Shown here: in pieces, positions 1 through 7,871 of the stretch
Position numbering within the stretch: position 1 is the first letter of the stretch
Layout of the letters: each line of letters begins with the position of its first letter
Source of the DNA: Lacinutrix sp. MedPE-SW
Lineage (GTDB): Bacteria > Bacteroidota > Bacteroidia > Flavobacteriales > Flavobacteriaceae
Assembly: GCF_001874145.1 (NCBI RefSeq)
Contig: NZ_MPCX01000003.1
Coordinates: 1 to 64,000 of the forward strand
Length of the DNA: 64,000 nt
Direction of reading: 5' to 3'
Notes under the pieces: model-generated
The model's input: the letters and a program-made list of their open reading frames with translations, nothing else
Database searches by the model: none
What the model was told of the DNA's origin: nothing
Program-made: the position numbers and the translations under genes

Positions 1-59
1 TAATCGCTTAAACGAAATAAAATGAATAAATTAGAGATCAGTTGCAATCCGAAAAGTTA

Positions 60-103
60 GTGAGTAAAACCCGCTACTTTTCATATACAAAACCGTTGTG
101 GTG
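60..103 (+). repeat. Cassette-array palindromic element R1 (right arm only)
   Basis: This is the right arm of the first member of the repeat family that separates the genes of the first 5 kb. Its AACCCGC...CATATACAAA..CGTTGTG layout aligns closely with the right arm of the element at 1946-2083. It ends in GTTGTGGTG (95-103), the exact reverse complement of CACCACAAC at 771-779, beyond the next gene. The left part of the element is not convincingly recognisable in positions 1-59 and may be diverged. The array could continue to the left of the window. Confidence 0.6.
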
Positions 104-113
104 CATACGAGAA

Positions 114-764
114 ATGACAAATCCAATTAAAATATCGTTTTTGATTTTACTGATTTTGACTTGTTTTAACTGTCATAATTCAGAAAGGAAAACAATTGAA
201 AAAATTGAAAAGAATTTTGGACTTTTTGAAAATGAAAACGACAGTATCGCAGTTGAATTAAAATTGACCGAATTTAAAAACTGGAATGACATACTCAAAC
301 GGACTGAACAAATCGTATGTAACGATAGTCTTCCAAAAATTACAATCGAAAATGACAGCACAATAAAAAGGGTTTATTTCAGAAATCCTTGTTGGGAGAA
401 TTTTGCTTGTATTTTAATCAAACAAAAGAATGTAATAGAAATACATAATGACACAATTAATAAACTAGACGAAAATTTTTATCCATTAGATAGTCTAATC
501 AAGATATTAAAAAGAGACTTGGAAAATAATGGCAAAAACCCAAGATTAAGTGACAATCCTGAAAAACTTCTGATTTATCTATCATATGACCAAAACGGAA
601 TTAAAAAATTACCAAAAACTCTGGATAAATTAATAAAGTCATTTGAACTAGTAACAGACAGAAAAGATTTGAAAATATGGCTGAATGAAAAAATTAATAT
701 TCCGCCACCACCACCGCCACCGAAAGAACCAGATGAAATCGAATTAATTGAAGATGAAAAATAA
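114..764 (+). CDS. Hypothetical exported protein, cassette gene 1
   Basis: A 216-residue protein of unknown function. I choose the ATG at 114 because the longer reading frame, opening with TTG at 42, would read its first 24 codons through repeat element R1. From 114 the N-terminus is a short basic stretch and a hydrophobic run (residues 6-16), followed by Cys17 and Cys20. That suggests an exported protein, possibly a lipoprotein with an atypical lipobox. The middle is rich in Lys, Asn, Asp and Glu. The C-terminus carries seven consecutive prolines followed by an acidic tail. The start codon lies only 10 bp after the R1 core, so there is no room for a private promoter. The gene ends 6 bp before the core of element R2. 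No family recognised. Confidence 0.6.
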   Translation: MTNPIKISFLILLILTCFNCHNSERKTIEKIEKNFGLFENENDSIAVELKLTEFKNWNDILKRTEQIVCNDSLPKITIENDSTIKRVYFRNPCWENFACILIKQKNVIEIHNDTINKLDENFYPLDSLIKILKRDLENNGKNPRLSDNPEKLLIYLSYDQNGIKKLPKTLDKLIKSFELVTDRKDLKIWLNEKINIPPPPPPPKEPDEIELIEDEK

Positions 765-770
765 GTACGA

Positions 771-905
771 CACCACAACAATGTATAACCGCAATTACGG
801 CGGATTCGACTACGTCCGAATCCACTCGGAATTGCTAACGCCAGTTCTAAACCGAAAATTAACGCATATTAACCCGTAACTGACGGTTATACGAGACCGT
901 TGTAC
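771..905 (+). repeat. Cassette-array palindromic element R2 (attC-like)
   Basis: An imperfect palindrome of about 135 bp between genes 1 and 2. Its outer stem pairs TATAACCG (784-791) with CGGTTATA (884-891) and TTACGG (795-800) with CCGTAA (874-879), with unpaired bases on one side only. An inner hairpin pairs GGATTCG (802-808) with CGAATCC (817-823). It begins CACCACAAC (771-779) and ends GTTGTAC (899-905). These variable flanks do not match each other, but each matches the far end of the neighbouring gene unit. The element is nearly identical to R3 (1346-1484). Confidence 0.85.
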
Positions 906-933
906 AACATTTGCCAAGAAAACTGAAAAAGGG

Positions 934-1335
934 ATGAAAATAAAATTAAACGAATCAGAAAACTCAATCGAAATCAAAGATGGACTAAAAAACCAATATC
1001 TGATTTTAAAAATTTTAATGATATTAAATTTAGCAAACGCAGTAATCCGAATATTTGGAAAACAAACAACTGAATATGGTTTTATTGAATATATCTGGAT
1101 TGGATTGGGAATTATTTCGTTAGTTGTTCTTTTTATGTTTTTGTTTAAAATGTCAACCGCGGAAAACATTCCCGTTGAACAAATAAGTCGACTAGAAGAA
1201 AAAACTGTGTTTGGAAAGAAAAGGTTTGCACTGGAATTGAAAAACGGAAAGAAAAGGAATTTGGGAAATTTCAAAACTCAATCTGACTTGATTAAAGTTC
1301 GCGAACTTTTTAAAATAATTGGAATCGCAAACTGA
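934..1335 (+). CDS. Hypothetical membrane protein, cassette gene 2
   Basis: A 133-residue protein of unknown function. Two hydrophobic segments (about residues 21-41 and 51-73) suggest two membrane passes. They are followed by a soluble, basic C-terminal part with alternating strand-like residues (roughly 83-130). The ATG at 934 comes 25 bp after the GTTGTACAAC core that ends element R2. The stop lies 10 bp before the matching GTTGTACAAC at 1346-1355. The whole unit is therefore bracketed by repeat elements and reads in the same direction as its neighbours. No family assigned. The opposite strand also has a 154-codon open frame here, judged to be a shadow. Confidence 0.6.
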   Translation: MKIKLNESENSIEIKDGLKNQYLILKILMILNLANAVIRIFGKQTTEYGFIEYIWIGLGIISLVVLFMFLFKMSTAENIPVEQISRLEEKTVFGKKRFALELKNGKKRNLGNFKTQSDLIKVRELFKIIGIAN

Positions 1336-1345
1336 ATAAAAAAAC

Positions 1346-1484
1346 GTTGTACAACAATGTATAACTGCAATTACGGCGGATTCGACTACGTCCGAATCCA
1401 CTCGGAATTGCTAAAGTCTATGCTAAACCGAAAATTAACGCATATTAACCCGTAACTGACGGTTATACCGAACCGTTGTAACCA
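1346..1484 (+). repeat. Cassette-array palindromic element R3 (attC-like)
   Basis: A near copy of R2 with roughly ten differences, mostly in the centre and ends. It keeps the inner hairpin GGATTCG (1378-1384) / CGAATCC (1393-1399) and the outer TATAAC...GGTTATA pairing. It begins GTTGTACAAC (1346-1355) and ends GTTGTAACCA (1475-1484). The second end matches TGGTTACAAC at 1946-1955, across gene 3. Confidence 0.85.
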
Positions 1485-1486
1485 AT

Positions 1487-1939
1487 TTGAGAAAAACCGA
1501 GTTCACATATAATCCAGAAGTAATTTTTGAATCTGATTTCAGCTCTGATTTGTTGAAATTTAACGGAATTGAAATCGGACAAAATTTGACTGAATTACCA
1601 ACCGAACTAATTTCTGAATTTTATGACAAAGAAGATAAAAGTCAAAATGCGGATATTAAGAATGGTTGGATTTTGACAAGTAACGGAATTCAATACGTAC
1701 TGAAAAATGGGATTGTGAAAATGATACGCGTTAAGGAAAACGGAATTACTAAACTGAACGGATTTGACAAAGTTTATGTGGAAAAACTGATTGGAAAACC
1801 GAATAAAATAAGTAATGATTCAATAACTTGGGTTTGGGACAATGTCGTTTATGCAAAAGTTCATCATTATAAAAAAAGAAAAACTAAAATTCACTTCTCA
1901 ACCGAAAACGGAAAAGTATGTGAATTAGAAATTGAATAA
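1487..1939 (+). CDS. Hypothetical protein, cassette gene 3 (TTG start)
   Basis: A 150-residue soluble protein of unknown function, rich in Lys, Asn and Glu, with repeated strand-like segments such as NGWILTSNGIQYVLKNGIVK. The only start near the beginning of the frame is TTG at 1487, two bases after the repeat core. The following TTGAGAAAAACCGA sequence closely resembles the untranslated leader of gene 4 (2087-2100), where an ATG follows. Either the coding region has been trimmed at its 5' end or the leader has become coding; I cannot tell which. No ATG occurs in frame until residue 79, too late to be the start. The stop is 6 bp before element R4. No signal peptide or membrane segment. Confidence 0.55.
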   Translation: MRKTEFTYNPEVIFESDFSSDLLKFNGIEIGQNLTELPTELISEFYDKEDKSQNADIKNGWILTSNGIQYVLKNGIVKMIRVKENGITKLNGFDKVYVEKLIGKPNKISNDSITWVWDNVVYAKVHHYKKRKTKIHFSTENGKVCELEIE

Positions 1940-1945
1940 AAAAAC

Positions 1946-2083
1946 TGGTTACAACACCGTATATAAAAAATTGCTGGTGTTGTGCTAAAACAAAGGTCGT
2001 TGCATGTTTGCTACGTCTGAATTTCCTTCGGAAATTCCTCGCACGCAAACCCGCAACTTTCCATATACAAACACGTTGTGCGT
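1946..2083 (+). repeat. Cassette-array palindromic element R4 (attC-like)
   Basis: An imperfect palindrome of about 138 bp. Its left arm (CAAC...GTATAT...ATTGC) pairs with the right arm (GCAAC...ATATAC...GTTG). A perfect 8-bp central hairpin lies at 2019-2026 / 2030-2037 with a 3-nt loop. The centre differs in sequence from R2 and R3 although the ends are alike. It begins TGGTTACAAC (1946-1955) and ends GTTGTGCGT (2075-2083). The latter is the exact complement of ACGCACAAC at 2716-2724, beyond gene 4. Confidence 0.8.
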
Positions 2084-2100
2084 CATTTGAGAAAACCGAA

Positions 2101-2739
2101 ATGCTAAAGATATTTAAGCGAAATATTAAATCTGAATATCAGGAAAGATTAAAAAAATCGTTTCCGAAAGAATTGCATTCGGACTTGAATGAAGTTTTGA
2201 AAATTTTACCGTTCGAAAATAATCAAGTCAAATTATGTAATGGACAAACTCACAAAGTTGACAATCTGATTCACGAATCGGAATTGAATATTGATTTTGA
2301 CAACGAAACTCTAATAATTCCCTACAGACTTTACTTTAACGAACCAAATCCAGAATTGGAAAAGTCTTTGACTAACAAACAAAAAGACATTTTAAATTGT
2401 ATTTATTTGCGTCATCACAATGGTTATTTAAGAGAAAAACGACTGAATTTAATATCTGATAGTTCAGAAAAATGGACTGTTCCATTTATAATCCAATTAA
2501 TTGGTGAATACGTTTATGAATTACTTCCAATAATTGACAAAAAAATAAACGAAAACACTTTGGATTATTACGCTAAATTTAGAGATGAAAACCCTAAATA
2601 TTGGCAACAGACCGAAAGTAGAATGATAAGCTATTGGAATGAATATTATAGATACAAATTTCCGAAACTGAAAGAATATTTGGGATTTGAAATTGTTAAC
2701 CGAATAAAAAAACGAACGCACAACAATGGCTATAAGTAA
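2101..2739 (+). CDS. Hypothetical protein, cassette gene 4
   Basis: A 212-residue soluble protein of unknown function. The ATG at 2101 is preferred over an upstream TTG at 2008, which would translate 31 codons of repeat element R4. The sequence is charged and likely alpha-helical with many aromatic residues in the C-terminal half (Tyr/Trp-rich around residues 145-190). No signal peptide or membrane segment. The last residues (NNGYK and the stop codon at 2737-2739) are encoded by the first bases of element R5, so gene and repeat overlap by about 24 bp. The start is 17 bp after the R4 core. No family recognised. Confidence 0.6.
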   Translation: MLKIFKRNIKSEYQERLKKSFPKELHSDLNEVLKILPFENNQVKLCNGQTHKVDNLIHESELNIDFDNETLIIPYRLYFNEPNPELEKSLTNKQKDILNCIYLRHHNGYLREKRLNLISDSSEKWTVPFIIQLIGEYVYELLPIIDKKINENTLDYYAKFRDENPKYWQQTESRMISYWNEYYRYKFPKLKEYLGFEIVNRIKKRTHNNGYK

Positions 2740-2862
2740 TTGCTTGTTCTCGCCTACTTAAAAAAATCCTCGCAGATTTTCTATTCGGTTTTTTTTTGCT
2801 AAATTAATTGTTGAAACACGCAACGAAATCATACACAAACACGTTAACTTTAATGCTAGAGC
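2716..2862 (+). repeat. Cassette-array palindromic element R5
   Basis: A diverged member of the same family. It begins ACGCACAAC (2716-2724), complementary to the end of R4 across gene 4. Its central hairpin is AAAATC (2763-2768) / GATTTT (2775-2780). The right arm keeps CACGCAACGAAATCATACACAAA-like sequence followed by CGTTAAC instead of CGTTGT. The inner part (CGCCTACTT...AATCCTC...CGGTTT...CTAAATTA.TTG) aligns with R6 (3340-3445). The right boundary is uncertain. Confidence 0.7.
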
Positions 2863-3085
2863 AAGTTTGCAGAAATGGATAAAGTTAGTTTATTTTCGGT
2901 TTTTTTTGTATTTTAAAAAAGTAAAAACCGAAAAACTATATTGCCAAAATTCGAAAACACGCTGAATTGAATTATGCCTGACTTTTTAGCTGGTTTACGG
3001 AATCGATATCTGAATTGAAAACTCGGATTTTTACTCAATCGGAACTTAGCAAATTGCGAAATTAAAAATTTTTAAAACTATTATT
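2863..3085. other. Non-coding stretch with a 12-bp inverted repeat
   Basis: Together with R5 this makes about 345 bp without a gene between cassette gene 4 and the small membrane protein at 3086. It contains a perfect 12-bp inverted repeat (TTTTCGGTTTTT ... AAAAACCGAAAA) within about 2893-2938, with a T/A-rich loop of 18 bp. Nothing else was recognised. It may be decayed cassette sequence, since the phrases CTGAATTGAA and CGGAATCGAT resemble text in the neighbouring cassette genes, but no open frame survives. Confidence 0.4.
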
Positions 3086-3307
3086 ATGGACAAAACAATT
3101 ACAGAATTTTCTTTAGGCTTATTTACTTGGCAAGCTTTAATAATAATTTCCATTGGACTTTGGATTTTTTGCCTAATAGATATTTTAAGAAACCAATTTC
3201 AGAAAAACGACAAAGTAATTTGGGCTTTAGTTGTTATATTACTTCCATTTATAGGTTCACTTTTATATTTATTTATTGGAAAAAGTAAAAAATTAAAACT
3301 GAATTAA
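3086..3307 (+). CDS. PLDc_N-type small membrane protein
   Basis: A 73-residue protein with two membrane segments (about residues 13-33 and 44-66) separated by a short basic loop (RNQFQKNDK). The order IDILRN...F..NDKVIWALVVILLPFIGSLLYLFIGK is typical of the short PLDc_N (phospholipase D-nuclease N-terminal) family found alone in many Bacteroidota. It has no catalytic domain and its role is not known; membrane anchoring or sensing is only a guess. It lies between elements R5 and R6 in the same orientation as the other cassette genes, but with an unusually long 5' leader. Confidence 0.7.
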   Translation: MDKTITEFSLGLFTWQALIIISIGLWIFCLIDILRNQFQKNDKVIWALVVILLPFIGSLLYLFIGKSKKLKLN

Positions 3308-3339
3308 TACCTTAAAAAAAACAAAAAAACACATAGCTA

Positions 3340-3445
3340 GCTCTAGCCTACTTGCAAAAATCCTCTCGGATATTCTATGCGGTTTGTATTTACTAAATTA
3401 GTTGCTAAACCAACGCAAAAAAGCATATAAAAAACCTTAGCGATA
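3340..3445 (+). repeat. Cassette-array palindromic element R6 (degenerate)
   Basis: This aligns with R5 over the inner part and the right arm (CTAAATTAGTTG..AAACCAACGCAAA...CATATAAAAAACC), but both ends have lost the ACAAC/GTTGT cores. GCTCTAGC (3340-3347) is complementary to GCTAGAGC (2855-2862) across the PLDc_N gene. Because it falls inside the element rather than at its edge, that match may be chance. The right boundary, near 3445, is approximate. Confidence 0.5.
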
Positions 3446-3457
3446 ATTAACCTAAAT

Positions 3458-4894
3458 ATGAAAACAGTAAAACGAATTCTTAAATTCATCCTTATAATTA
3501 TTGGAGCTTTGCTGGTATTTATCGCGGTGATGCTTCTAGTAGATAAACAAAGCACCAATTACTTAAATAGTAAAAATATTAAATCTGCTAATAATAATTC
3601 TTTCCTTATTACCAATGTTAATATAATTCCAATGAACCAAGACACTGTTTTAGTAAACAAAATGGTGTACATAAAAGATGGAATAATTCAAAAAATTGCA
3701 GATAGGATTGAAACAAATGGAGTTGAAACTCTTGATGCAAAAAACAAATATCTAACACCAGGTCTTATAGATATGCATGTTCATGTATGGGATAGATATG
3801 AACTTGGACTATATCTATCTAATGGAGTTACGGCAGTTCGAAATTTATGGGGTATGCCAATGCATCTAAGAATTAAAGAAGAAGTAAACAATAACGAAAT
3901 TATTTCACCTATATTTTTTACAACAGGACCTAAACTTACAGGTCCAGAATTTATAGGAGATGATAACTTAAATCTAAACAGTCCACATGAAGCTAAAGAA
4001 AAAGTAATCTCGTTTAAAAAAAGAGGTTACGATTTTATCAAAACTTACTATGGATTGGATAAAGAAATCTTTGATGCCGTGATTGAACAGGCAAGAGTTT
4101 CTAACATTGATATTGTTGCTCATCCATCTCAAAAAGTACCATATTCGTATCATTTTAATTCACAAATAAAATCTATAGAACATGCAGAGGAAATAATTCA
4201 ACAACCGCTAAACTACAACTTATTAGATACACTAAAATTAAAAGAAGTAGTTAACGATTTCTCAAAATCAAAACATAGTACTTTTAGTCCAACTTTAACA
4301 GTTTACAACAACATCTATCAAATGCTTATTGATGATAATATTTTAGAATTAGAACAACTTCAATTCATGAATCCGCTTATTAAAAGAATTGATAGTAAAG
4401 CACAATTTGACAGATGGCACAGCACTAAACTAAGAGATTCTTCAATTATTAAGGCTATAAAGAACCAGCATGATTTGCATATAAAAATCATTAAAAAATT
4501 ACATAAAGAAGGTGTTACTTTTATTTGCGGAACAGATGCTGGAATAGGAGTAACAATTCCTGGGTTTTCAATTCATAAAGAACTAGCATTCTATAAAGAA
4601 GCTGGACTTTCTAATTATGAAGTACTTAAAACAGCTACAATAAATGCTTCAAAAACTCATTCTATTATGAACAATATGGGAACCATTGAAGTTGGCAAAA
4701 TTGCGAACTTATTACTAACAGATAGCAATCCTTTGTTAGAATTATCTACATTAAAAAACCCATCAACCATTTTTATAAAGGGTAGAAAATTAAACAAAGA
4801 TTCTCTTGAAAATTTTGAAGAAAAAGCTAGGAACCGGAAAAACTTAATAGCATCCGCTGTAAGATATTTAGAGCACTTGATATTTGAAAAATAA
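3458..4894 (+). CDS. Membrane-anchored amidohydrolase family protein
   Basis: A 478-residue metal-dependent hydrolase of the amidohydrolase superfamily (imidazolonepropionase/prolidase-like branch). Residues 5-29 form a membrane anchor after a basic start, so the enzyme should face the periplasm. The beta-sandwich segment follows, then the metal motif HVH (His107, His109) in PGLIDMHVHVW, a putative carbamylated or bridging Lys in FIKTYYG, His in VAHPS and IEHAEE, and the catalytic Asp in GTDAGIG. The C-terminus returns to the sandwich domain (GTIEVGKIANLLLTDSNP). The substrate cannot be read from sequence. It is flanked by degenerate repeats R6 and R7, in the orientation of the small cassette genes, and may be the last unit of the array. 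Confidence 0.8.
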   Translation: MKTVKRILKFILIIIGALLVFIAVMLLVDKQSTNYLNSKNIKSANNNSFLITNVNIIPMNQDTVLVNKMVYIKDGIIQKIADRIETNGVETLDAKNKYLTPGLIDMHVHVWDRYELGLYLSNGVTAVRNLWGMPMHLRIKEEVNNNEIISPIFFTTGPKLTGPEFIGDDNLNLNSPHEAKEKVISFKKRGYDFIKTYYGLDKEIFDAVIEQARVSNIDIVAHPSQKVPYSYHFNSQIKSIEHAEEIIQQPLNYNLLDTLKLKEVVNDFSKSKHSTFSPTLTVYNNIYQMLIDDNILELEQLQFMNPLIKRIDSKAQFDRWHSTKLRDSSIIKAIKNQHDLHIKIIKKLHKEGVTFICGTDAGIGVTIPGFSIHKELAFYKEAGLSNYEVLKTATINASKTHSIMNNMGTIEVGKIANLLLTDSNPLLELSTLKNPSTIFIKGRKLNKDSLENFEEKARNRKNLIASAVRYLEHLIFEK

Positions 4895-4903
4895 ACCACC
4901 ACT

Positions 4904-5026
4904 AACAACGTGAATATTAATTGAATTAGCATGTTCTTAATTGGAAAATTACTAGTAAATTTTCTATTAAGTTTTTACTTGCTAAATATATACAAGAAAA
5001 GAAAATACAATATTCATAGAGACAAC
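4904..5026 (+). repeat. Cassette-array palindromic element R7 (terminal, degenerate)
   Basis: The last member of the repeat family. The outer arms pair TGAATATT (4911-4918) with AATATTCA (5009-5016). The central hairpin is AAAATT (4945-4950) / AATTTT (4958-4963). The CTAACAACGTG beginning recalls the ACAAC core and TTGCTAAAT in the right half recalls R5 and R6. No further copy is visible to the right, so this seems to end the array. Confidence 0.5.
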
Positions 5027-6578: not shown

Positions 6579-7871
6579 TTAAAGTGTTATTTTTTGTTTT
6601 ACAACCGCAAACGCCTCTTTTAAATCGGCTTTTAAATCTTCAACATTTTCAATGCCCACAGAAAGTCTTATTAAATCTTTTGTTACACCAGTGCTTTCTT
6701 GAGCCTCATCGCTTAATTGTTGATGTGTAGTACTTGCAGGATGAATTATTAATGATTTTGTATCGCCTATGTTCGCTAAAAGAGAGAACAGTTTTGTGGT
6801 ATCTGCAATTGTTTTTGCAGACTCGTAACCACCTTCTACTCCAAAAGTTACAATACCGCTTTGACCGTTTGGCAAGTATTTATCTGCTAAATTTTTATAG
6901 TCGCTTGTTTCTAAACCAGGATAATTTACCCAAGTAACTTCTTCTTGTTGCTTTAACCATTTTGCAAGTTCTAATGCATTTTGACTGTGTTTAGTTATTC
7001 GCAACTCTAATGTTTCTAATCCTTGAATAATTTGAAAGGCATTAAACGGGCTTAGCGCTCCTCCATAATCTCTTAATCCTTCAATTCTAATTTTTGCAAT
7101 AAATGCCGCCTCTCCAATAGCTTCACTATATACTAAACCATGATAACCTGGTGATGGCTCTGTAAACTCTGGAAACTTACCATTAGTCCAATCAAAATTT
7201 CCAGCATCAATAACTACACCACCTAAAGATGTACCATTACCATTAATGTATTTTGTTAAAGAATGAATTACAATATTTGCACCGTATTCAATTGGGTTTA
7301 ACAAATACGGCGTAGCTACAGTATTGTCTACAATTAAAGGCACTTTATGCGCTTTTGCGTGTTTAGAGATTGCTTCAATATCTAATACATCTAATTTAGG
7401 GTTTCCTAAAGATTCTACAAAAATTGCTCTTGTATTCTCTTGTGCTGCTGCTTCAAAATTTTCTGGATTTGAAGGATCTACAAACGTTGTTGTAATACCA
7501 TGTCTTGGCAGCGTTACACTTAATAAATTATACGTTCCGCCATACAAACTACTAGAAGCAACAATATGATCTCCAGCTTTTAAAAGCGTTAACAAGGTTG
7601 TAGAAATAGCTGCTGTTCCAGATGCTGTTGCTACTGCAGCAATTCCTCCTTCTAAAGCTGCTAATCGCTGCTCTAACACATCATTTGTTGGGTTGTTTAA
7701 TCTTGTGTAAATAAATCCTGGAACAGAAAGATTAAACCTTCCTGCCGCATCGTCTGAATCATCAAAAACATAAGCTGAAGATTGATAAATAGGAACTGCT
7801 CTTGTTCCTCCTGTTTGATTTACATCGTGTCCTGCGTGCAACGCTTTTGTTGCAAATTTTTGTGTACTCAT
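6579..7871 (-). CDS. metY: O-acetylhomoserine sulfhydrylase
   Basis: A 430-residue PLP enzyme of the Cys/Met metabolism family that makes homocysteine from O-acetylhomoserine and sulfide. Visible marks are the N-terminal ATKALHAGHDVNQTGGTRAVPIYQSSAYVF, the YTRLNNPTND motif, the PLP phosphate region SSSLYGGTYNL, the Asp in VDNTVATPYL and the Schiff-base lysine in HSLTKYINGNG. The length matches the family (about 425-435). It is the first gene of the operon, preceded by a 121-bp leader that follows the SAM-I aptamer and contains a terminator hairpin. High S-adenosylmethionine should therefore switch it off. The start ATG fits the family's usual beginning. Confidence 0.93.
   Translation of the reverse strand: MSTQKFATKALHAGHDVNQTGGTRAVPIYQSSAYVFDDSDDAAGRFNLSVPGFIYTRLNNPTNDVLEQRLAALEGGIAAVATASGTAAISTTLLTLLKAGDHIVASSSLYGGTYNLLSVTLPRHGITTTFVDPSNPENFEAAAQENTRAIFVESLGNPKLDVLDIEAISKHAKAHKVPLIVDNTVATPYLLNPIEYGANIVIHSLTKYINGNGTSLGGVVIDAGNFDWTNGKFPEFTEPSPGYHGLVYSEAIGEAAFIAKIRIEGLRDYGGALSPFNAFQIIQGLETLELRITKHSQNALELAKWLKQQEEVTWVNYPGLETSDYKNLADKYLPNGQSGIVTFGVEGGYESAKTIADTTKLFSLLANIGDTKSLIIHPASTTHQQLSDEAQESTGVTKDLIRLSVGIENVEDLKADLKEAFAVVKQKITL

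What the first reader, a model, noticed from the sequence alone, without database searches (positions are those of the whole stretch)
1..5026. Integron-like gene cassette array without a visible integrase, in a flavobacterium
Seen: six + strand genes, mostly small unknowns, are each separated by one member of a family of seven imperfect-palindrome elements (60-103, 771-905, 1346-1484, 1946-2083, 2716-2862, 3340-3445, 4904-5026). Each full element is about 105-150 bp with bulged outer stems and a variable central hairpin, always in one orientation relative to the genes. Known: this one-gene-one-site layout is how integron gene cassettes and attC sites are arranged; clusters lacking an integrase are called CALINs. 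Inference: this may be a Bacteroidota branch of such a system with its own core sequence (GTTGT/ACAAC instead of GTTRRRY/RYYYAAC). Integrons are rarely reported from this phylum.
Basis: partly seen in the sequence, partly recalled or inferred. Interest (0 to 1): 0.9.

Follow-up and report, generated by a model that had tools for sequence, protein, structure and literature searches.

The report
Flavobacterial integrons with an unusual recombinase
This bacterium carries a gene-collecting system that works like an integron; its sites turn up in most sampled genera of its family, and its likely recombinase lacks the part thought to define integron enzymes.

Summary
The array is real and part of a larger system. 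The window is the truncated start of contig C16; the genome shows 42 such elements on 11 contigs. A mobile unit runs from the TT after one element's G to the G of the next. In most units the first 9 nt are the reverse complement of the last 9, with a unit-specific 7-nt tag: 124 of 154 cassette families against a shuffled mean of 6, repeated in other genera, 49 of 62 against 3. Identical units sit in different arrays, similarity dropping at G|TT. A tyrosine recombinase ('IntX', my name) heads the array on contig C19 beside an attI-like site. Of 149 sampled genomes of the family, 132 have elements and 97 have IntX. Predicted strand energies and G.T wobbles favour folding of the bottom strand, as in attC. 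IntX lacks the 42-residue insertion of integron integrases and forms its own clade. So it works like an integron but fails the IntI membership test: a new variant of a known kind. Seven searches of open-access papers found no description. Recombination is inferred, not assayed.

The parts
1..104 (+). Element 1, 5' end lost at the contig start; crossover G|TT at 95/96
   Evidence: by eye aligns with L027:4170-4315
96..899 (+). Cassette 1 (gene about 114-764, 216 aa, no Pfam match). Start tag GTGGTGC; the end tag matches by eye with a 1-nt insertion
766..912 (+). Element 2 (attC-like site), AAC at 777, G|TT at 899/900
900..1475 (+). Cassette 2 (gene 934-1335, 133 aa, no Pfam match); first 9 nt are the reverse complement of the last 9
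1341..1488 (+). Element 3, G|TT at 1475/1476
1476..2075 (+). Cassette 3 (gene about 1487-1939, no Pfam match); 9 of 9 end complementarity
1941..2088 (+). Element 4, G|TT at 2075/2076
2076..2843 (+). Cassette 4 (gene 2101-2706, 201 aa, no Pfam match); first 8 nt complementary to the end
2710..2856 (+). Element 5, G|TT at 2843/2844. Close identity with the sister genome begins at this G|TT
2844..3436 (+). Cassette 5 (gene 3086-3307, 73 aa, PLDc_N domain), DNA shared with sister genome G091; right border approximate
3318..3449 (+). Element 6, decayed
   Evidence: E 3e-7
3437..5026 (+). Cassette 6 (gene 3458-4894, amidohydrolase), shared with G091; borders approximate
4896..5026 (+). Element 7, decayed last site, not listed by the model

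Best explanation
This is the distal, old end of one of several cassette arrays of an integron-like system of Flavobacteriaceae. SHOWN by sequence: most units are a gene plus one attC-like element, running from |TT to G|; their two ends carry the same 7-nt tag in inverted form; whole units occur at other places with similarity ending at G|TT; a tyrosine recombinase (IntX) heads arrays, with an attI-like site ending in the same G|TT. INFERRED: IntX excises a unit as a circle. In the circle the unit's own start and end meet and rebuild a long hairpin on the bottom strand (GTT + 7-nt tag + a G.T wobble + 3 more pairs, then an unpaired spacer and an inner stem). IntX recombines that folded strand at G|TT with attI or another element. 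The tag is kept because the hairpin must close, not because its sequence is read. A conserved A.C mismatch on the top strand is G.T on the bottom strand, so only the bottom strand pairs fully and the gene enters in one orientation. Older cassettes drift to the far end and their elements decay, as in the window.
For: Tag match: 153 of 197 cassettes at 6 or 7 of 7 (200 shuffles: mean 7.7, maximum 15; two arms of one element 17 of 230). By families: 124 of 154 (1000 shuffles: mean 6.1, maximum 15); among those 124, 71 distinct tags. Other genomes: 49 of 62 (mean 3.3, maximum 9). Mobility: in G014 units of 558-1418 bp are 100% identical at other sites with flanks at background identity. Sister genomes: at the IntX locus homology stops at attI G|TT; at the window locus close identity starts at element 5's G|TT. 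Strand: rebuilt sites fold better on the bottom strand in 120 of 124, gene segments in 25 of 124; G.T pairs 5.3 against 0.8. Recombinase: 12 of 13 IntX genes with room on the expected side have an array there; the next 40 in rank: 29 of 31 by covariance model (tallied by eye), 25 of 31 by HMM, 9 without room, 79 elements on the expected side and strand, 1 not. Elements and IntX co-occur: both 94, elements only 38, IntX only 3, neither 14; p=3e-5. attI-like sequence ends G|TT by eye in 12 of 13 readable loci of 14 printed.
Against: No recombination assay. IntX lacks the domain reported as necessary for integron recombination. 44 of 197 cassettes lack a clear tag match (missed elements, decay or wrong boundaries; not separated). 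38 of 132 element-bearing genomes have no IntX at the cut-off, so another recombinase could act there. Misses in adjacency: the G047 copy on C72 has no element within 10 kb on the side its sub-group predicts, and L215 and L232 have none. Some adjacent hits are weak (L087 E 1e-4; L218, L221, L230, L231 E 2e-5 to 1e-4). Of 18 nearest loci in named genomes (L145-L162) 5 show arrays, 6 lack room by assumed orientation, 6 have none and 1 has one weak hit, so R1 or the association fails farther out. One attI region (Aquimarina, L154) lacks GTT. Pair types were counted only in tag-matched families. Energies come from a nearest-neighbour model; 13 of the 15 bottom-type wobbles outside position 10 sit at one position. 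Cassettes are related by descent, so counts are not fully independent. Genome size confounds co-occurrence: 12 of 17 element-free genomes are under 2 Mb.
Confidence: 0.86

Rival explanations
1. The cassettes are moved by the host's ordinary XerC/XerD or another recombinase, and IntX merely lives beside the arrays.
For: 38 of 132 element-bearing genomes lack IntX at the cut-off. The own genome has other tyrosine recombinases, two of them Xer-like. A third recombinase lineage lies beside elements in L141 and L142.
Against: IntX sits at the leading end of an array in 12 of 13 and 29 of 31 loci with room, with the same polarity within each sub-group, and the attI-like site ends at the shared crossover G|TT.
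Confidence: 0.1
2. Double-stranded site-specific recombination: the elements are ordinary dif/lox-like sites and the inverted tags only give two half-sites.
For: Tyrosine recombinases usually bind two inverted arms on double-stranded DNA (established knowledge); IntX lacks the IntI insertion.
Against: The arms covary instead of keeping one sequence: 71 distinct tags in 124 families. Mismatches are strand-asymmetric (A.C on top = G.T on bottom) and the bottom strand is more stable in 120 of 124.
Confidence: 0.08
3. Canonical integron remnants: arrays built by a normal IntI that has since been lost or lives on plasmids.
For: Canonical IntI is common elsewhere in the phylum (105 of 395). One R1-type element lies 1 kb from a true IntI (L123).
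Against: None of the 107 IntI-matching genomes is of this family. 13 of 14 IntI loci fetched show no R1-type element (L123-L135 and L139). Only 12 of 231 R' boxes fit GTTRRRY.
Confidence: 0.05
4. The elements are ends of a transposon or insertion sequence, or ordinary terminators or repeats with no recombination role.
For: They are palindromic, intergenic and follow genes.
Against: Whole units, gene included, recur with unrelated flanks, and the tag at one element matches the next element, not the other arm of its own element (17 of 230). Neither a terminal repeat nor a terminator predicts this.
Confidence: 0.02

Closest known systems
Integrons with IntI (class 1 and chromosomal integrons) and their attC sites
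   Same: Gene-plus-site units; AAC/GTT borders; crossover at G|TT; 9-11 nt complementary ends; bottom-strand folding; attI beside the recombinase; mostly one gene orientation. The attC features are those of PMC2727003 (passages read).
   Different: The recombinase lacks the IntI additional domain and scores 186 bits against a 265 cut-off. R' rarely fits GTTRRRY (12 of 231). A conserved A.C mismatch at position 10 of the arm. The recombinase points away from the array in the own genus and along it in most other genomes examined.
CALIN (cluster of attC sites lacking an integrase)
   Same: The window array and others have elements but no recombinase in view.
   Different: A recombinase is present elsewhere in the genome, and the window array is cut by the contig start, so its head cannot be seen.
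Xer recombinases (XerC/XerD, archaeal XerA)
   Same: Best NCBIfam match NF040815 at 203 bits (cut-off 220); best fold matches by E-value are XerA 5hxy and IntI4 2a3v.
   Different: IntX lies outside the Xer clade (support 100/100) and next to cassette arrays.
'Integron-like' subgroup of tyrosine recombinases (PMC8138268)
   Different: The passages I read describe no cassette arrays or sites for members without the insertion.

Membership tests
Integron | IntI-type recombinase with the additional domain near patch III | tested here: not met
   64-65 residues between the conserved Lys and His in 16 of 16 IntX, 106 in 13 of 13 IntI, 68-72 in 4 Xer; below the TIGR02249 cut-off
Integron | attI site beside the recombinase, receiving cassettes at G|TT | tested here: met
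   own and sister genome share the region up to G|TT and then carry different cassettes
Integron | attC sites with AAC/GTT borders and complementary ends of the cassette | tested here: met
Integron | R' box consensus GTTRRRY (recalled consensus) | tested here: not met
   12 of 231
Integron | Folded bottom strand is the substrate | tested here: inconclusive
   predicted bias in 120 of 124; no assay
Integron | Cassettes hold one gene in a fixed orientation | tested here: met
   of 153 tag-matched cassettes the longest ORF is forward in 126, reverse in 7, under 40 aa in 20
Integron | Cassettes move as units | tested here: met
   identical units at different sites; comparative, not experimental
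Integron | Promoter driving the array from the recombinase end | not tested
   no promoter scan was run; the tool covers sigma-70-type sites only
IntI family | Falls in the IntI clade | tested here: not met
   IntI clade 100/100, IntX clade 99/93 separate; root at midpoint
XerC/XerD | Falls in the Xer clade and passes Xer cut-offs | tested here: not met
CALIN | No integrase near the array | tested here: inconclusive
   the window starts at a contig end; in G091 the same locus begins with an attI-like copy and no IntX-like ORF is found in the 20 kb fetched
Transposon or insertion sequence | Constant terminal repeats and target-site duplication | tested here: not met
   tags differ between cassettes (71 in 124 families) and are inverted within one cassette; duplications were not searched for separately

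The most novel reading that the evidence does not exclude
A second class of integrons: folded-single-strand cassette exchange carried out by a recombinase lineage that never had, or has lost, the IntI additional domain. Its sites are near-universal in one bacterial family and occur on plasmids and on virus-like contigs, one of which carries its own IntX-like recombinase. It would show that the domain thought essential for reading attC hairpins is dispensable or was solved another way.
Probability: 0.6. Interest if true: 0.95.

Novelty: new variant of a known kind. Interest (0 to 1): 0.87.

Why it matters
Reviews list Bacteroidota among phyla with integrons (PMC8618304), but the IntegronFinder 2.0 passages I read name one complete integron in Bacteroidetes proper, in Salinibacter. 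Here 132 of 149 sampled genomes of one family carry the sites, at least 102 in one genome. If IntX is the enzyme, integron recombination does not need the IntI domain, and how hairpin sites are recognised becomes testable with a smaller enzyme. The cassettes are also a large pool of small genes, some of them defence- or immunity-like. That the family matters as degraders in sea and soil is general knowledge, not from a call.

Tried and rejected
Rfam scan of the window: only a SAM riboswitch. RNAalifold on alignment A2 found 8 pairs only; the tag pairs only when a cassette's own two ends are compared. A search for canonical attC by GTTRRRY in five true IntI loci gave nothing clean and was dropped. 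Phage records: no match. The breakpoint at window 2703 first looked off-site; realignment showed family-level likeness left of G|TT and near-identity right of it. The C22 array's shared cassette and distal border gave no clean border and are not counted. Alignment A5 only served to scan 108 cassette proteins. On checking, my first tally of 12 of 12 arrays beside IntX became 12 of 13: G047 had been excused for lack of room on the wrong side.

Literature: (search listings) showed no description of these arrays; the library is open-licence PubMed Central without preprints, so absence is weak evidence. Passages only were read of PMC9024848, PMC8618304, PMC9668308, PMC2727003, PMC8138268 and PMC2426708.
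Full report
THE OBSERVATION. The window is contig C16:1-64000 of a 3.04 Mb genome in 22 contigs. Its first 5 kb hold six plus-strand genes with related palindromes between them. Element 1 is cut by the contig start; elements 2-5 are intact; element 6 is decayed; element 7 is not listed by the model. A model built from 16 elements (A2, R1) finds 42 at E<1e-4 in the genome, on C1, C4, C5, C7, C8, C16, C17, C19, C20, C21 and C22; 16 of the 42 are its training rows, and 150 of 2645 candidates were scored. Several lie at contig ends, as expected of repeats that break assembly. The family is unnamed in the tool (f1); I take it as Flavobacteriaceae because the closest named relatives of the recombinase are Lacinutrix and Nonlabens.

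THE UNIT. When the base after an element's G is taken as the start of a cassette, the first 9 nt (TT plus a 7-nt tag) are usually the reverse complement of the 9 nt ending at the next element's AA. In the first 12 cassettes 11 matched over 8 or 9 nt; the twelfth spanned an element missed by the pattern, and both halves then matched. Of 197 cassettes in the 35 loci searched, 153 match at 6 or 7 of 7 tag positions; random pairing gives 7.7 on average and 15 at most in 200 shuffles; the two arms of one element match in 17 of 230. Grouped into 154 families by shared sequence of at least 250 bp, 124 match (1000 shuffles: mean 6.1, maximum 15), with 71 distinct tags among the 124. A second set of 45 loci from genomes not used before, chosen for their recombinase and not for tags, gives 49 of 62 cassettes against a mean of 3.3 and a maximum of 9 (17 locus strands contributed). 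Among the 124 matched families, position 10 is A facing C in 108, A facing G in 13 and A-T in 3, and positions 11-13 covary.

MOBILITY. In G014, a single-contig genome, several units are identical at different places: 1418 of 1418 bp (L088/L093), 741 (L088/L092) and 765 (L089/L093), in two arrays about 500 kb apart, and 704 (L088/L090) within one array region. Bodies were cut at G|TT beforehand, so the evidence for the border is that identity falls from 100% to about 50% in the 40 nt before TT (family background) and to about 35% after G (output cut in the middle). One 558-bp cassette occurs many times. Some of the 133 pairs share only part of a unit or share a neighbour as well; these are not used as evidence.

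SISTER GENOME. G091 is of the same genus and 97% identical at the window flank. At the window locus the two share the DNA of cassettes 5-6 and the core genes; to the left the elements are only family-alike and the cassettes differ, the switch lying at element 5's G|TT. No gene-body match to cassettes 1-4 was found in G091, only 20 element-sized matches, with 40 of 153 candidates scored. At the recombinase locus 10.8 kb is shared (88% overall, 97% in the 1.8 kb next to the border) up to attI ...AATAG|TT / ...AATTG|TT, and then the first cassettes differ, both starting TT-tag-ATTT.

THE RECOMBINASE. On C19 a 279-aa tyrosine recombinase (IntX) faces away from a three-element array; its start codon is about 95 bp from the first cassette, whose two ends carry the same tag. 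By protein search at E<=1e-60, 16 of 149 family genomes have it; by profile at E<=1e-75, 97 of 149. Elements occur in 132 of 149 at E<=1e-6 with 21 candidates scored per genome. Both 94, elements only 38, IntX only 3, neither 14 (Fisher p=3e-5). Of the 16 genomes I fetched 14 neighbourhoods besides the own one, leaving out G016. Twelve show an array at the leading side (5 divergent, 7 pointing along the array; the one element of L087 is weak, E 1e-4). G010 and G030 have 229 bp before the contig end on the divergent side. G047 has no element although there are 10 kb on the side its sub-group predicts, so it counts as a miss: 12 of 13. For the next 40 hits: 29 of 31 with at least 500 bp of room by covariance model (tallied by eye), 25 of 31 by HMM, 9 with no room; 79 elements as expected and 1 not. 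Loci in named genomes with an adjacent array: Lacinutrix venerupis, L. mariniflava, Aureitalea sp. L0-47, Aquimarina sp. U1-2 and a Flavobacteriaceae MAG. Of the other 13 among L145-L162, 6 lack room by assumed orientation, 6 show none and 1 has one weak hit; L163-L169 are more distant recombinases.

WHAT KIND OF RECOMBINASE. NCBIfam gives 203 bits to NF040815 (cut-off 220) and 186 to the integron integrase model (cut-off 265). Between the conserved Lys and His, 16 of 16 IntX have 64-65 residues, 13 of 13 IntI of the phylum 106 and four Xer 68-72 (one search shows the alignment). A tree of 58 proteins puts the Xer side apart (100/100), the 13 IntI in one clade (100/100) and the IntX family in another (99/93); three proteins of a further lineage join IntI weakly (90/67). 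The midpoint root does not say whether IntX is older than IntI. A predicted structure of the L. venerupis protein (mean pLDDT 85, pTM 0.62) matches XerA and IntI4 best by E-value, with moderate TM-scores (0.56, 0.63) and large rmsd (14 and 9). The additional domain is described as necessary for integron recombination (PMC9668308) and as not fully conserved in the integron-like subgroup (PMC8138268). Catalytic positions are invariant in the 16 rows except the first Arg, which is Ser in L067 (which residues are catalytic is recalled).

WHICH STRAND. For 124 rebuilt circular sites the bottom strand is more stable in 120 and the top in 4; 121 of 124 are more stable rebuilt than in the array. Gene segments of equal length show the opposite bias, bottom more stable in 25 and top in 96 of 124. 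Bottom-strand folds hold 5.3 G.T pairs on average, top-strand folds 0.8. Outside position 10 the arm wobbles are 15 bottom-type to 1 top-type, 13 of the 15 at position 9. This is what selection on a folded bottom strand would leave, as for attC.

KNOWN OR NEW. attC sites have only AAC and GTT fixed, pair over 9-11 nt and are cut between C and A of the bottom R' box (PMC2727003); these elements do the same in the features I could test. They depart in the R' consensus (12 of 231 fit GTTRRRY) and in the enzyme. I therefore call it integron-like, not an IntI integron.

SPREAD AND CARGO. Phylum-wide, 48 of 395 genomes have elements at E<=1e-8 with only 7 candidates scored per genome, so this is a lower bound. 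Plasmid records with a match to one element: Tenacibaculum finnmarkense 2, Persicobacter 2, Flagellimonas 1. The 108 cassette proteins scanned hit 58 Pfam families, of which 25 are shown, 18 of those by one protein each; they include restriction, immunity-like and toxin-antitoxin types; HerA and PtuA models match one protein each in PADLOC. The tool does not say how many proteins had no match; of the six window genes four had none.

Noticed in passing
L171:4746-9388 (IMG/VR contig of 70 kb): A virus-like contig carries five element matches and a divergent IntX-like recombinase of 266 aa; one cassette shows, by eye, the tag, the A.C mismatch and matching positions 11-13. Neighbouring proteins have no PHROGs function, so its viral nature rests on IMG/VR.
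   Followed up: partly
L170: A second virus-like contig has seven element matches at E<=0.01.
   Followed up: no
L123:11858-14249: One R1-type element lies about 1 kb from a true IntI, and a repeat beside the IntI occurs twice around it; IntI may be able to capture such cassettes.
   Followed up: partly
L141:1263-18487 and L142:11189-12993: A further tyrosine recombinase lineage: four ORF matches in L141, each with an element on the other strand just upstream (one of these weak, E 0.05); L142 has one beside an array.
   Followed up: no
L109:6949-7021: A copy of the attI-like sequence starts the window-locus array in the sister genome, with no IntX-like ORF in the 20 kb fetched.
   Followed up: partly
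L067:1387-2316: The IntX of one genome (G127) has Ser where the others have the first catalytic Arg, and that genome's elements are weak; possible decay.
   Followed up: no
window:7991-8114: SAM riboswitch on the minus strand ahead of the minus-strand gene 6579-7871, unrelated to the array.
   Followed up: no
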